Shown one piece after another: positions 3,221 to 8,012 of a stretch of DNA of 45,993 nucleotides (position 1 is the first letter of the stretch; the number at the start of each line of letters is the position of its first letter). Both the position numbers and the translations under genes were made by a program. This DNA is from Desulfobacterales bacterium. GTDB lineage: Bacteria; Desulfobacterota; Desulfobacteria; Desulfobacterales; JARGFK01. The DNA is taken from NCBI GenBank assembly GCA_029211065.1, contig JARGFK010000028.1, forward strand, positions 1 through 45,993. Direction: 5' to 3'. The notes below the pieces were generated by a model. It was given only the letters and a program-made list of their open reading frames with translations, made no database searches and was not told the origin of the DNA.

Positions 3221-3868
3221 ATGAAATTGCAGGATAAGCTGGACGGAATCAAAAGAGATTTTGAGAAAAAAGCGCCCAAGGAGGCTTTAAAAATCATGCA
3301 CCGCGCTGTGGATGATCTGACAAATTCCGGAATTCTGGACCGGACCGTAAAAGTTGGAGATAAGGCGCCGGAATTCATCTTGAGAAACACAAAGGGACAG
3401 GAAGTGGCCTTAAACCAGCTTCTGTCGAAAGGACCGATCGTGCTGGGCTTTTACAGGGGTCGATGGTGACCTTACTGCAATTTAGAGCTGGAGGCTCTAT
3501 CAGAAACGGTCCCGGAAATAGAAGCACTGGGCGCCTCGCTGGTCCTTATCTCTCCCCAATTAGAGGAGCACAATCGCGCCGTTGCCGAGGACAAAGGACT
3601 GGATGTGGAAATCCTCAGCGATCCGGGAAATAAGGTGGCAGAACGCTACGGCATCAAGTATACGCTTCCAGATGATCTTAAGAAATTGTATCAGCAGTTC
3701 AAGATTCATCTTAACGAATACAATGGGGATGATTCCTGGACGCTTCCCATGCCGACCCGGCTCATCATCGATCAGGCCGGCATCATCCAGTATGCAGAAA
3801 TAAGTCCGGACTATACCGTAAGACCGGATCCTGGGGAAACCATAGCGGCATTAAAAGAAATTATTTGA
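3221..3868 (+). CDS. Peroxiredoxin-like selenoprotein (AhpC/TSA family; Sec at TGA 3467-3469)
   Basis: The gene encodes 215 residues when TGA 3467-3469 is read as selenocysteine (residue 83). The redox site reads FYRGRW-U-PYCNLEL, matching the FYRGxWCPYCNxEL motif of an AhpC/TSA-like peroxiredoxin subgroup, with Sec in the position of the first (peroxidatic) cysteine and Cys86 forming UxxC. The thioredoxin fold continues in the same frame: [11 protein letters not shown], then [17 protein letters not shown], then [18 protein letters not shown]. An N-terminal ~40-residue helical region precedes the domain ([12 protein letters not shown]). The predicted role is thiol-dependent reduction of peroxides in the cytoplasm. 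AGGAGG lies before ATG 3221. A six-base-pair hairpin follows the TGA. The gene converges on the glucosidase gene, and the two ends overlap by 8 nt. Confidence 0.9.
3483..3499 (+). other. Candidate bacterial SECIS hairpin of the peroxiredoxin gene
   Basis: TAGAGC (3483-3488) pairs perfectly with GCTCTA (3494-3499) around the loop TGGAG. The loop starts 20 nt after the TGA and has G at its second position, which meets the minimal consensus for bacterial SECIS elements. The hairpin lies within coding sequence, as is usual in bacteria. Confidence 0.7.
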
Positions 3869-6544
3869 AGGGAAATCCCCCTGACTGTTGGATCAACTTG
3901 GCAACGAGACCCGTCCAGCCGGTCTGATGACTGGCCCCCAGGCCCGCGCCGTTGTCGCCGTGAAAGTATTCGTTAAAAAGGACCAGGTTTTTCCAGTGGG
4001 GGTCATTCTGAAAAATGCGCTGCCCGCCGAATATCGGCCGTTCACCATTGCCATTGCGCAAAAACAGTTTCATTAATCTGCGGGACAGTTCGGTGGCCAC
4101 CTCACCAAGCGTCATCATGTTTCCGGAACCGGTGGGACATTCCACCTTCAACGAATCACCATAGTAATGATTGAATTTTTGCAGGGATTCGATCAACAGA
4201 TAATTAATTGGAAACCAGATCGGCCCTCTCCAGTTGGAGTTTCCGCCGAACAACCCGCTTTCGGATTCCGCCGGTTGGTAGCTGATGGTATGCGCCTGGC
4301 CGTCCACATAAAACGAATAGGGATGGTCCTTATGGCATCTGGAAACAGACCGGATACCGAACTCTGAAAGAAATTCGCTTTCATCCAGCATGGATCGCAG
4401 CACCTTAATCAGGCGGTCGCGGTTGACAATTGACAGCAGCCGGCGCGAATTTTCACCCGGCGATTTCACACAGGCGACATTGCCGCTGTCGCGCAGATAA
4501 ACCCGATTTTCGAAGAACCAGTTCAGGCGTCGCTTGAAAATGGGCAGGCTTTCTACGAGATCATCCTCCAGGGTCTCGACGGCGAGCAGCGGCATTAATC
4601 CCACGAGAGAGTGGACTTTAAGTGGAATGATTCTGCCGTCCGGTAAATGCAGGGCGTCGTAAAAAAAACCGTCTTCCTCATTCCAAAGGCTCAGACCGCC
4701 ACGGTAATCGGCAGTCATGGCCCGGGCGATCCGCAGAAAATGTTCAAAAAATTTACTGGCGCTGTCCTGATATACCGGGTTTTTTGCGGCCAGCTCCAAA
4801 GCGATCTTGAGCATGATCAGACAGTAAAATGCCATCCAGGCCGTCCCGTCGGATTGATCGATGTGGCCGCCGGTAGGCAGCGACGCACTGCGGTCGAATA
4901 CACTGATGTTGTCCAACCCGAGAAAACCGCCCTGAAAGACGTTGCGTCCGCCTTCATCCTTTTTATTTACCCACCAGGTAAAGTTCAGCAACAGCTTGTG
5001 AAAGATGCTTTCCAGAAAAGCTCGATCGGCCTTGCCCCGCTGCTTGGCGTCGATTTTATAGACTCGCCAGGCCGCCCAGGCGTGCACCGGCGGGTTGACA
5101 TCGCCGAATTGCCACTCATAGGCCGGCAGCTGCCCGTTGGGATGCATGTACCATTCGCGAGCCATCAGCTCCAGCTGTCGTTTTGCAAAGTCTGCCTCAA
5201 CCAGGGCAAGCGGAATGCAGTGGAACGCCAGATCCCAGGCCGCATACCAGGGATATTCCCATTTGTCGGGCATAGAGATGATATCGAAGTTGCTTAGATG
5301 CTCCCACTCATGGTTGCGCCCGTCACGGCGGGCCTCCGAAACGGGAGGCATGGCCGGGTCGCCTTCTAACCATTGCTCGATATTGTAATAGAAAAACTGT
5401 TTCGTCCAGAGCATGCCGGATAAGGCCTGACGTTGCACACGATTTTCATCGGTGCTCAGGTTGGGATTTTGTATCGCTGCGTAAAATTCGTCAGCCTCTG
5501 CCTGACGTTTTTCAAAAATCTCATCAAAACCCATGAAAGCCAATGGGAGCGTCCGGCTTGAAAGGCGCAACCGCAAAACCCGGGATTCGCCTTGTGCAAT
5601 CACACCGCTGTAAAGGGCTACGACCTTTGTGCCTTCCCCGGCCGGGTTGATCGCTTCTTTTTCTCTGTTGACCAGGTATCGGTGAAACGCATCTTTGACA
5701 TAAAAACCGCCTTTGGGTGAGTTGGAAAAACGGGCTGCATTGGTTTCGTTTTCAGTGAAAAGCAATTCCGCTGCTTTTTCAGCATACAGATAATAGGTGC
5801 CGGCTGCCGGGTGATTAGCTTCCACCGCGGCGATTCCCGCTTTAGCTTTAATCTGTCTGAGCTGAGGTTTTCCCTGCATATCCCCCATAGGGCCTTTTTC
5901 ATACCCCCAGCTCCAGGTATTGCGGAACCAGAGCGTGGGCAGCACATGACATTCGGCGGCCTCGGGTCCTCGGTTTGCCGTCGTGATCCTGATCAGAATA
6001 TCATCCGGGTCGGCCTTGGCATACTCGACAAAGACATCAAAGTATCGGTTTTGCTCAAATATACCGGTATCGATTAATTCATATTCAAAGTCCAAATGAT
6101 CGCGCCGCACATTTTCTGCCAAAAGTTCACTGTAGGGAAACTCCGCCTGGGGATATTTGTAGAGCATTTTCATATAGCTGTGCGTCGGTGTACTATCTAA
6201 ATAGAAATAATATTCCTTGACATCTTCACCGTGATTGCCCTCGGAACCATTCAGCCCGAACATGCGTTCCTTTAGGATCGGGTCCCTGCCGTTCCAAAGG
6301 GCCAGTGCAAAACATAGATACTGAAAACGATCTGATATACCGGCAATGCCGTCTTCACCCCAGCGATAGGCCTTGCTGCGCGCATGATCATGGGGGAAAA
6401 ATCCCAGGCGCTGCCGTCGGCACTGTAATCTTCCCGCACCGTTCCCCAGGAACGCTCACTGAGATAGGGGCCCCATTTTTTCCAGTTTAAACCGTGATTC
6501 CGGTATGATAAAATTCGATGATGTTCAGCCGTCCATTTTGTCAT
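3861..6544 (-). pseudogene. GH63/MGH1-like glucosidase, one frameshift near 6397-6401
   Basis: With one added base the gene would encode about 894 residues, the usual length for the bacterial GH63-type glucosidase family. The N-terminal part (6544 to about 6400) reads [25 protein letters not shown]. From 6263 downward come [54 protein letters not shown] and the C-terminal [15 protein letters not shown], all family hallmarks of an (alpha/alpha)6 barrel. The bridge between the halves is encoded in another frame ([16 protein letters not shown], then [15 protein letters not shown]), so a T is missing from a T run (5 present, 6 expected). Annotators would report two ORFs, 6272-6544 and 3861-6263. 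The family hydrolyses glucosyl linkages in oligosaccharides or compatible-solute glucosides; the substrate is not evident. It may be intact if the missing base is a sequencing error. Confidence 0.85.
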
Positions 6545-6711: not shown

Positions 6712-7311
6712 ATGACAAAAGAAATTTCAGCCGCAAGCCCCGACCATGACCCCGAAACCTGGCTGGATCAATATGGAGACTACTTGTACCGGTTTGCCCT
6801 TGCCCGCAGCAAGGATCAGGCTGTAGCTGAGGATCTGGTGCAGGAAACTTTCCTGGCTGCCCTGCGTGGTTATAAAAACTTCAAAGGTGATTCCGCTATA
6901 AAGACCTGGCTTACGGCCATTCTCAAGCATAAGATAGTGGATCATCTCAGAAAAAAGAACCGCGAGAGAGCGGTGGATGATGTTGATAGGGTGTCGGAAA
7001 CAGTTGACGGATTTTATCATAACAATGGCAGGTGGAAAGTCCGGCCGGAAAAATGGGATCAAAACCCTTCCGGGATATACGAACAGCATGAATTTCTGGA
7101 TACACTCTATAAATGCCTTTCGGAACTTCCTGCTCGAATCTCCAGAGCGTTCATGCTTAGAGAAATAGAAGGCCTCAATACCGAGGAAATTTGTAAAGAT
7201 TTACAGGTTTCTGCGACTAATAGTTGGGCAATGCTTTACAGGGCAAGAACGTACCTGAGACGCTGCCTTGAAATATTTTGGTTTAACAAGGATAAGGATA
7301 AAAGCATATGA
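6712..7311 (+). CDS. ECF-type RNA polymerase sigma factor (sigma-70 family)
   Basis: The product has 199 residues. Region 2 is clear at about residues 20-80 (DLVQETFLAALRGYKNF, TWLTAILKHKIVDHLRKKNR), and region 4 at about 135-190 (LPARISRAFMLREIEGLNTE, then a helix-turn-helix ending in ARTYLRRCL). A longer-than-usual linker separates them, as in the subgroup often paired with a zinc-finger anti-sigma protein. The stop codon overlaps the start of the next gene (ATGA), so the two proteins are translationally coupled. It should direct RNA polymerase to stress or envelope genes; the target promoters are unknown. ATG 6712 has no strong ribosome site. Confidence 0.92.
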   Translation: MTKEISAASPDHDPETWLDQYGDYLYRFALARSKDQAVAEDLVQETFLAALRGYKNFKGDSAIKTWLTAILKHKIVDHLRKKNRERAVDDVDRVSETVDGFYHNNGRWKVRPEKWDQNPSGIYEQHEFLDTLYKCLSELPARISRAFMLREIEGLNTEEICKDLQVSATNSWAMLYRARTYLRRCLEIFWFNKDKDKSI

Positions 7312-7622
7312 TGTCTCACTGGATGTTTAATTGTAAAGAAGTATCCCGCCGGGTTTCCGAATCAATGGACCGCAGGATCCCTCTTTATCAACGCCTGCTG
7401 ATCCGGATGCATCTCTTGATGTGCAGGCACTGTGCCCGATTCAGGCGGCAGCTTATGTTCATAAGAGAACTTTGTCGCAGCCGAAAACTGAATGAAGACC
7501 TGCCGGATAAACCCGCCTATATGCCCCCGGATGCCCGCGAACGAATCAAGCAGGCACTAAAAGATGCCGCAGGTCGTATGACCTTATCCTGTAAAGGATC
7601 CAGCAAGGCTATCCGTTTCTAA
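7308..7622 (+). CDS. Zinc-finger anti-sigma factor (putative zf-HC2)
   Basis: The product has 104 residues and is very basic. The anti-sigma zinc motif H-x3-C-x2-C is visible (HLLMCRHC), with an upstream cysteine in NCKEVSRRV completing the site. There is no membrane segment, so this is a soluble, cytoplasmic type that would hold the neighbouring sigma factor until a redox or zinc signal releases it. It overlaps the sigma gene by 4 nt. Its 3' end overlaps by 4 nt the end of the convergent small selenoprotein gene. Confidence 0.85.
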   Translation: MMSHWMFNCKEVSRRVSESMDRRIPLYQRLLIRMHLLMCRHCARFRRQLMFIRELCRSRKLNEDLPDKPAYMPPDARERIKQALKDAAGRMTLSCKGSSKAIRF

Positions 7623-7801
7623 ACTTTGTACGGAGACATATCGGTATGATTCGGTTCAAGGACGTCATCCGGTTCTCGCATATATTTTTCCGGCGGGTAA
7701 AAAGCGCTGCATGACCGGCAGCGCAGCAGCACACGCCTTCAAGTCCGCAGGATGACGATTTCGCCTCCGCAGGAAGGGCATTCGGCCAATATTTTCTTCA
7801 T
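7619..7801 (-). CDS. Dual-CXXC small selenoprotein (Sec at TGA 7741-7739)
   Basis: A 60-residue product is encoded from ATG 7801-7799 to TAG 7621-7619 if the in-frame TGA is read as selenocysteine (residue 21). Two CxxC pairs flank it: C8-P-S-C11 and C28-R-S-C31, so the arrangement is CxxC-x9-U-x6-CxxC, like a zinc ribbon or small redox protein. AAGGAGG with 7-nt spacing precedes the ATG, showing a real start. The TGA is followed by a perfect 7-bp hairpin whose loop contains GGUC, as in the E. coli fdhF SECIS. I recall a family called dual CXXC motif small (seleno)protein, which this appears to match; that is memory, not a search. The function is unknown. A standard caller would miss the gene, since the ORF before the TGA has only 20 codons. 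Confidence 0.78.
7704..7724 (-). other. Strong bacterial SECIS hairpin of the dual-CXXC gene
   Basis: On the minus strand GCGCTGC and GCAGCGC form a perfect 7-bp stem around the loop CGGTCAT. The loop lies 22-28 nt after the TGA. It has G at position 2 and a GGU core like the loop bound by SelB in the E. coli formate dehydrogenase message. This is the best SECIS candidate in the window. Confidence 0.8.
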
Positions 7802-8012
7802 TCCAAAACCTCCTTGACTGATTGTGGCTCATTTCTGAGTTTGAATACAGCGATTTATGTCTGCTTTAAGAAAATATTCAAGTTTTATACGCTATTTTGT
7901 AAGCATTCTCCAAGCTTTCAGATAAATCATGCCTGCATAAACATTGTGGCCATATTCAAAAAAAGAAATTGTCATCAGAAACTTCCTCAATTTGGTCAAC
8001 GGCTTTTCCAGA
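7802..8012. other. Gene-poor AT-rich stretch
   Basis: This stretch lies between the start of the dual-CXXC gene and the stop of the minus-strand hypothetical gene. A plus-strand ORF of 68 codons covers it, but it has no ribosome site and unlike-protein composition. I see no convincing gene. It presumably carries the promoter of the dual-CXXC gene. Confidence 0.4.

What the first reader, a model, noticed from the sequence alone, without database searches (positions are those of the whole stretch)
7619..7801. Unannotatable 60-residue selenoprotein with two CxxC motifs and a textbook SECIS
A strong ribosome site and ATG lead into CPSC, an in-frame TGA, then CRSC in the same frame. A perfect 7-bp hairpin with a GGUC-containing loop lies 22-28 nt after the TGA. 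Gene callers would report nothing here because only 20 codons precede the TGA. The Sec lies between two metal- or redox-type cysteine pairs, an arrangement suited to a zinc ribbon with a redox switch. It converges on a sigma/anti-sigma pair.
Basis: partly seen in the sequence, partly recalled or inferred. Interest (0 to 1): 0.85.

Follow-up and report, generated by a model that had tools for sequence, protein, structure and literature searches.

The report
Small selenocysteine zinc-ribbon protein, second copy
The stretch is a real 60-residue gene that reads one TGA codon as selenocysteine; it belongs to an already named but uncharacterised bacterial selenoprotein family, and this copy is a relocated, partly diverged duplicate of the genome's standard copy.

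Summary
ATG with a strong ribosome site, CPSC, TGA as codon 21, CRSC, stop. A 7-bp hairpin with loop CGGUCAU follows, its loop 21 nt after the TGA. SelA, SelB and tRNA-Sec are in the same genome. The protein is not unannotatable: it passes the cut-off of NCBIfam NF041197, 'dual CXXC motif small (seleno)protein' (OS_HP3). 43 of 58 searched same-order genomes have a match, nearly all with an in-frame TGA; other orders have Cys there. The hairpin covaries in Sec forms and decays in Cys forms, so it is a SECIS. Predicted fold: a zinc ribbon with Sec in the turn of the beta-hairpin, away from the four Cys, so a zinc-release redox switch at Sec is less likely than a selenol held out on a finger (function inferred, untested). 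What is particular here: this is a second copy. The standard copy sits in the order-wide argJ / AEC permease / truA neighbourhood. The window copy lies beside an ECF sigma/anti-sigma pair, has evolved about nine times faster, keeps the metal-and-Sec core and SECIS, and has lost the family's C-terminal LANIPC(N/D)R(L/I) signature.

The parts
7808..7815 (-). Shine-Dalgarno AAGGAGGT, 6 nt before the ATG
   Evidence: sequence
7619..7801 (-). selenoprotein gene, 60 residues, ATG...TGA(Sec21)...TAG; NF041197 family member
7769..7780 (-). codons 8-11, CPSC, first Cys knuckle
   Evidence: Cys8 and Cys11 invariant in the alignment
7739..7741 (-). TGA, codon 21, selenocysteine; Cys in homologs of other orders
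7704..7724 (-). SECIS hairpin: 7-bp stem, loop CGGUCAU; its bases are also the codons of the second Cys knuckle
7709..7720 (-). codons 28-31, CRSC, second Cys knuckle, lying inside the SECIS
7622..7693 (-). diverged C-terminal tail (codons 37-60), family signature LANIPC(N/D)R(L/I) replaced by HTDMSPYKV
6712..7311 (+). neighbour: ECF sigma factor (Sigma70_r2, Sigma70_r4_2)
7308..7622 (+). neighbour: zf-HC2 anti-sigma-like protein; its stop overlaps the selenoprotein's stop by 4 nt

Best explanation
A real selenoprotein gene of the known family NF041197 (OS_HP3), present here as a second, relocated copy. The ribosome reads TGA 21 as Sec by means of SelB, tRNA-Sec and the hairpin that follows; the same bases that form the SECIS encode the second CxxC. 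The product folds as a Cys4 zinc ribbon whose beta-hairpin turn carries the Sec. My most likely mechanism (inferred, about 0.45): the zinc ribbon is a rigid scaffold that holds a reactive selenol out on a fingertip for a redox exchange with a partner protein or small oxidant. In the standard copy of most relatives a C-terminal Cys could serve as resolving thiol; in this lineage it is absent in both copies, so the partner or a free thiol would have to do so. The duplicate was moved beside a sigma/anti-sigma pair, kept the core under selection and lost the conserved tail, suggesting that it kept the chemistry but lost or changed the tail's contact. Shown here: membership, Sec/Cys exchange, SECIS covariation, machinery, paralogy, core constraint. 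Inferred: zinc binding, redox role, tail function. The stated confidence is for the first part (a real, Sec-decoded, relocated family member), not for the redox mechanism.
For: NF041197 E 4e-14, 52.4 bits, cut-off 40. 43 of 58 same-order genomes match, almost all with one in-frame TGA. Cys at the position in 11 sequences, mostly of other orders. SECIS: 91% of stem cells paired, 19 double changes against 6.3 shuffled, covariation 0.378 against 0.229, 0/500; variable stem pairs kept in Sec forms and lost in Cys forms (pair 20-36: 78% against 9%). selA, selB, tRNA-Sec. Paralogy: nearest sequence is the genome's own copy, sister in the tree, end branches 0.67 against 0.073. Core codons 1-36 pN 0.15, pS 0.72; tail 37-60 pN 0.42, pS 0.59; Fisher p 0.005. 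Neutral simulation from the other copy retains frame, TGA, four Cys and stem in 0.01% at 0.5 substitutions per site and in none of 20000 at 0.8. Zinc-ribbon model, core pLDDT 80-86, strands 14-19 and 24-28 with Sec in the turn; best structural matches are zinc ribbons.
Against: No expression, metal or Sec incorporation data. The model's pTM is 0.47 and every structural match is weak (E above 0.05; best Z 3.9). dN and dS are for the pair, not for the window branch alone; SECIS overlap also limits synonymous change. No second genome was found with this copy, so conservation of the copy itself cannot be tested. Tail divergence would also fit early decay.
Confidence: 0.85

Rival explanations
1. 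The window copy is a decaying duplicate (young pseudogene): the core is still intact by inertia, the tail has already been lost.
For: End branch nine times longer than that of the standard copy; C-terminal signature lost with pN/pS 0.72; outside the conserved gene neighbourhood; no orthologue of this copy found in other genomes.
Against: Near-saturated synonymous change with low amino-acid change in the core; neutral retention of all core features is very unlikely at such distances. Ribosome site and SECIS are intact, the stem longer than that of the standard copy (7 bp against 6).
Confidence: 0.15
2. The hairpin with its following TTTTT is an intrinsic terminator and the TGA an ordinary stop: the locus would make a 20-residue leader peptide whose translation controls termination.
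For: The stem is followed by TTTTTA and scores as a terminator on the minus strand.
Against: A T-run is in only 8 of 44 sequences while the stem is in nearly all; the region gives 0.9 such hits by chance; protein conservation goes on beyond the TGA to the last residue in relatives; Cys replaces TGA in other lineages.
Confidence: 0.03
3. A genuine selenoprotein but not a redox protein: a nucleic-acid- or RNA-polymerase-binding zinc ribbon in which Sec at the hairpin tip touches the target, as acidic residues do in transcript-cleavage zinc ribbons (the latter from general knowledge).
For: Closest folds are Rpb9/C11-type, TopoI and NudC zinc ribbons; RPC10 (C11) also matches the profile weakly by sequence; Sec in the hairpin turn; basic residues beside Sec (RTURR).
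Against: Matches are weak and zinc ribbons are very common; Cys exchange and the absence of other replacements among the family members read in full point to chalcogen chemistry.
Confidence: 0.2

Closest known systems
NF041197 CxxC_Se_CxxC, dual CXXC motif small (seleno)protein (= OS_HP3, first reported from an Olavius algarvensis symbiont; the accession is also listed for hypothetical protein DW)
   Same: Two CxxC motifs, Sec between them, RxU context, length about 60, SECIS over the second CxxC; above the curated cut-off
   Different: This copy lacks the C-terminal LANIPC(N/D)R(L/I) signature and the argJ / AEC / truA neighbourhood seen in the same order
Standard copy in the same genome (G000:C35:4998-5180, L032)
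   Same: 60 residues, no gaps, 55% identity, Sec, SECIS with the same loop start CGGUC
   Different: Standard neighbourhood and standard tail (GNIPVDRI); slow branch
Zinc ribbons of RNA polymerase subunits (Rpb9/C11), NudC, TopoI, ZifS
   Same: Predicted Cys4 beta-hairpin arrangement
   Different: No Sec, no significant similarity; family membership not claimed

Membership tests
NF041197 dual CXXC motif small (seleno)protein | score above the curated cut-off | tested here: met
   52.4 bits, cut-off 40
NF041197 dual CXXC motif small (seleno)protein | two CxxC motifs with Sec or Cys between them | tested here: met
NF041197, same-order branch | C-terminal LANIPC(N/D)R(L/I) signature | tested here: not met
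   tail is HTDMSPYKV; the match to the family profile ends at residue 49. The signature marks a branch, not the whole family: other members also have other tails
NF041197, same-order branch | position beside argJ, AEC permease or truA | tested here: not met
   38 of 42 same-order loci have at least one of these nearby; the window does not
Bacterial selenoprotein gene | SECIS hairpin 16-37 nt after the UGA within published limits | tested here: met
Bacterial selenoprotein gene | SelA, SelB and tRNA-Sec in the genome | tested here: met
Bacterial selenoprotein gene | Sec present in the protein | not testable with these tools
   needs Se-75 labelling or mass spectrometry
Zinc ribbon | Cys4 site closing a beta-hairpin | tested here: inconclusive
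   AlphaFold2 core pLDDT 80-86, pTM 0.47; structural matches mostly zinc ribbons but weak
Zinc ribbon | binds zinc | not testable with these tools
   needs metal analysis of purified protein

The most novel reading that the evidence does not exclude
A neofunctionalised, tail-free paralog of the family that keeps the fingertip selenol but has left the standard neighbourhood and come under the influence of the adjacent ECF sigma/anti-sigma system, making it a redox part of a stress response.
Probability: 0.12. Interest if true: 0.5.

Novelty: new member of a known kind. Interest (0 to 1): 0.3.

Why it matters
The family is widespread in its order and has no known function. The pair of copies in one genome separates the core (metal and Sec) from the tail, and the Cys homologs suggest how the SECIS shapes the protein: the residue after the third Cys is Arg or Lys in 53 of 68 Sec forms and most often Pro in Cys forms (6 of 11), because the codons there are also the SECIS loop. 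The standard neighbourhood (argJ, AEC permease, truA) is a starting point for function. The window copy also shows that gene finders which end at TGA miss this class: deep-Sep itself missed an OS_HP3 gene in Desulfosarcina widdelii (PMC12013277).

Tried and rejected
Reading the + strand in 7619-7801 gave no sensible protein. Single-sequence folding in longer context does not separate the hairpin from shuffles. A scan of GTDB contigs with the window protein found no relative, and the alignment had no stretch conserved enough to scan with, so no named closest species is given. Looking beside the sigma/anti-sigma pair in 11 same-order genomes for a matching selenoprotein gene gave none (about 1.5 kb on each side). 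Gene neighbours in other orders (dnaX-ybaB-recR, fabD, aroE and others, recognised by eye) show no shared function. Two weak second hits, in G006 and G043, lack the Sec arrangement. The 2007 paper that first described OS_HP3 is not held. A literature search for a Sec-bearing zinc ribbon with SECIS and CXXC found nothing.

Full report
What is there. The feature lies on the minus strand, 7801 to 7619. A strong ribosome site (AAGGAGGT, 7815-7808) precedes ATG; the frame reads MKKILAECPSCGGEIVILRTURRVLLRCRSCSAFYPPEKYMREPDDVLEPNHTDMSPYKV and a TAG. TGA is codon 21 (7741-7739). The hairpin GCGCUGC-CGGUCAU-GCAGCGC (7724-7704) starts 15 nt after the TGA, its loop 22 nt after it. These values fall within the published bacterial SECIS model (PMC13188914).

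Is it more than chance? Yes, by comparison and not by folding. Alone the 21-nt hairpin is stable (-11.6 kcal/mol, 7 of 200 shuffles as good), but in longer context it is not better than shuffles. Across 38 related genes the six-pair stem is formed in 91% of cells against 83% in shuffles, with 19 double changes against 6.3 and a covariation score of 0.378 against 0.229, none of 500 shuffles reaching it; slid stems fall to 15-58%. The shuffles do not keep relatedness, but pairs such as column 21-35 (C-G 33, U-A 7 of 44) show the compensatory pattern directly. Most telling, in 11 homologs with Cys instead of Sec the variable pairs decay: column pair 20-36 is formed in 78% of Sec forms and 9% of Cys forms, 21-35 in 88% and 27%. 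The sequences are related, so the p values there are only indicative.

Known family. The protein scores 52.4 bits (cut-off 40) with NCBIfam NF041197, dual CXXC motif small (seleno)protein. The review PMC13188914 lists this accession for hypothetical protein OS_HP3 (RxU) and for hypothetical protein DW (GxU); PMC9312934 lists OS_HP3 with the 2007 Olavius symbiont paper as its source. So the family is known, with no function assigned. 43 of 58 same-order genomes have a match, almost all with one in-frame TGA; in a phylum sample 55 of 198 have one, including Sec forms with other contexts (GRU, GTU) and Cys forms.

A relocated second copy. The same genome holds a standard copy (L032, G000:C35:4998-5180), 55% identical over 60 residues without gaps. 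In the order, 38 of 42 such loci have argJ, an AEC-type permease or truA beside the gene, and the standard copy has all three (the gene names rest on sequence resemblance seen by eye, not on a family search). The window copy has none; it faces an ECF sigma factor and a zf-HC2 anti-sigma protein tail to tail. DNA similarity between the two loci is confined to the gene. The sigma/anti-sigma pair has relatives in 13 of 58 genomes, with no such selenoprotein gene beside it in the 11 loci examined, within about 1.5 kb. In the tree the two copies are sisters (100/71), the window copy on a branch of 0.67 against 0.073 (60 columns, rough).

Core kept, tail lost. Between the two copies codons 1-36 have pN 0.15 and pS 0.72, codons 37-60 pN 0.42 and pS 0.59 (Fisher p 0.005). 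The tail of 37 of the 42 same-order proteins, counted by eye, ends in Cys followed by (N/D)R(L/I/F/V); the standard copy here has Val instead of that Cys, and the window copy has lost the signature altogether. Neutral change from the standard copy would keep frame, TGA, four Cys and stem in about 1 of 10,000 cases at 0.5 changes per site and in none of 20,000 at 0.8. I take the copy to be functional in its core (about 0.8), with decay as the main rival.

How it may work. AlphaFold2 gives strands 14-19 and 24-28 with the Cys pairs at their open end and Sec in the turn 20-23 (core pLDDT 80-86, tail about 50; the standard copy gives the same core with a further C-terminal helix at 47-52). Foldseek and VIA-align return mostly zinc ribbons, all weak. 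I had no coordinates to measure, but in such a hairpin the turn is the end away from the metal. This speaks against Sec as a zinc ligand and for a selenol held out on a finger. Redox exchange with a partner is the most likely use (about 0.45), contact with a nucleic-acid machine the main alternative (about 0.2); neither is tested.

RNA and protein share the same bases. The SECIS stem and loop are the codons of the second CxxC and its neighbours. The third base of codon 29 is G in 63 of 68 Sec forms and 5 of 11 Cys forms; residue 29 is Arg or Lys in 53 of 68 Sec forms, Pro in 6 of 11 Cys forms. The apparent conservation of CRSC is therefore probably in part a demand of the SECIS and not only of the protein; the Cys forms are few and related.

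Verdict. By kind an ordinary member of a known selenoprotein family of unknown function; of some interest because it is a diverged paralog that separates core from tail.

Noticed in passing
window 3221-3868 (+): A second likely selenoprotein gene 4 kb away: an AhpC/TSA-type peroxiredoxin (PF00578, 100 bits) with an in-frame TGA at codon 83 in the motif GRWUPYC; ORF callers split it into 3221-3469 and 3605-3868. The stretch after the TGA folds modestly better than shuffles (z -1.39).
   Followed up: partly
window 7699-7724 (-): The SECIS stem is followed by TTTTT and also scores as an intrinsic terminator; a T-run of four or more there occurs in 8 of 44 sequences, both copies of this genome among them.
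   Followed up: partly
window 3861-6544 (-): MGH1/GH63-like glycoside hydrolase ORF (3861-6263) preceded closely by a 90-residue ORF (6272-6544) that may be its N-terminal part in another frame; possible frameshift or assembly error.
   Followed up: no
L032:2514-9539: The standard copy lies between argJ and a row AEC-type permease, truA, tatC, ClC-type channel; the adjacency of argJ and truA to this selenoprotein is order-wide and unexplained (names by eye).
   Followed up: partly
L097-L099, L109: Sec-type relatives with GTUA context and CLTC as second knuckle whose hairpin does not fit the usual stem at the usual register; in three of the four (not L097) the next genes look like dnaX-ybaB-recR.
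   Followed up: no
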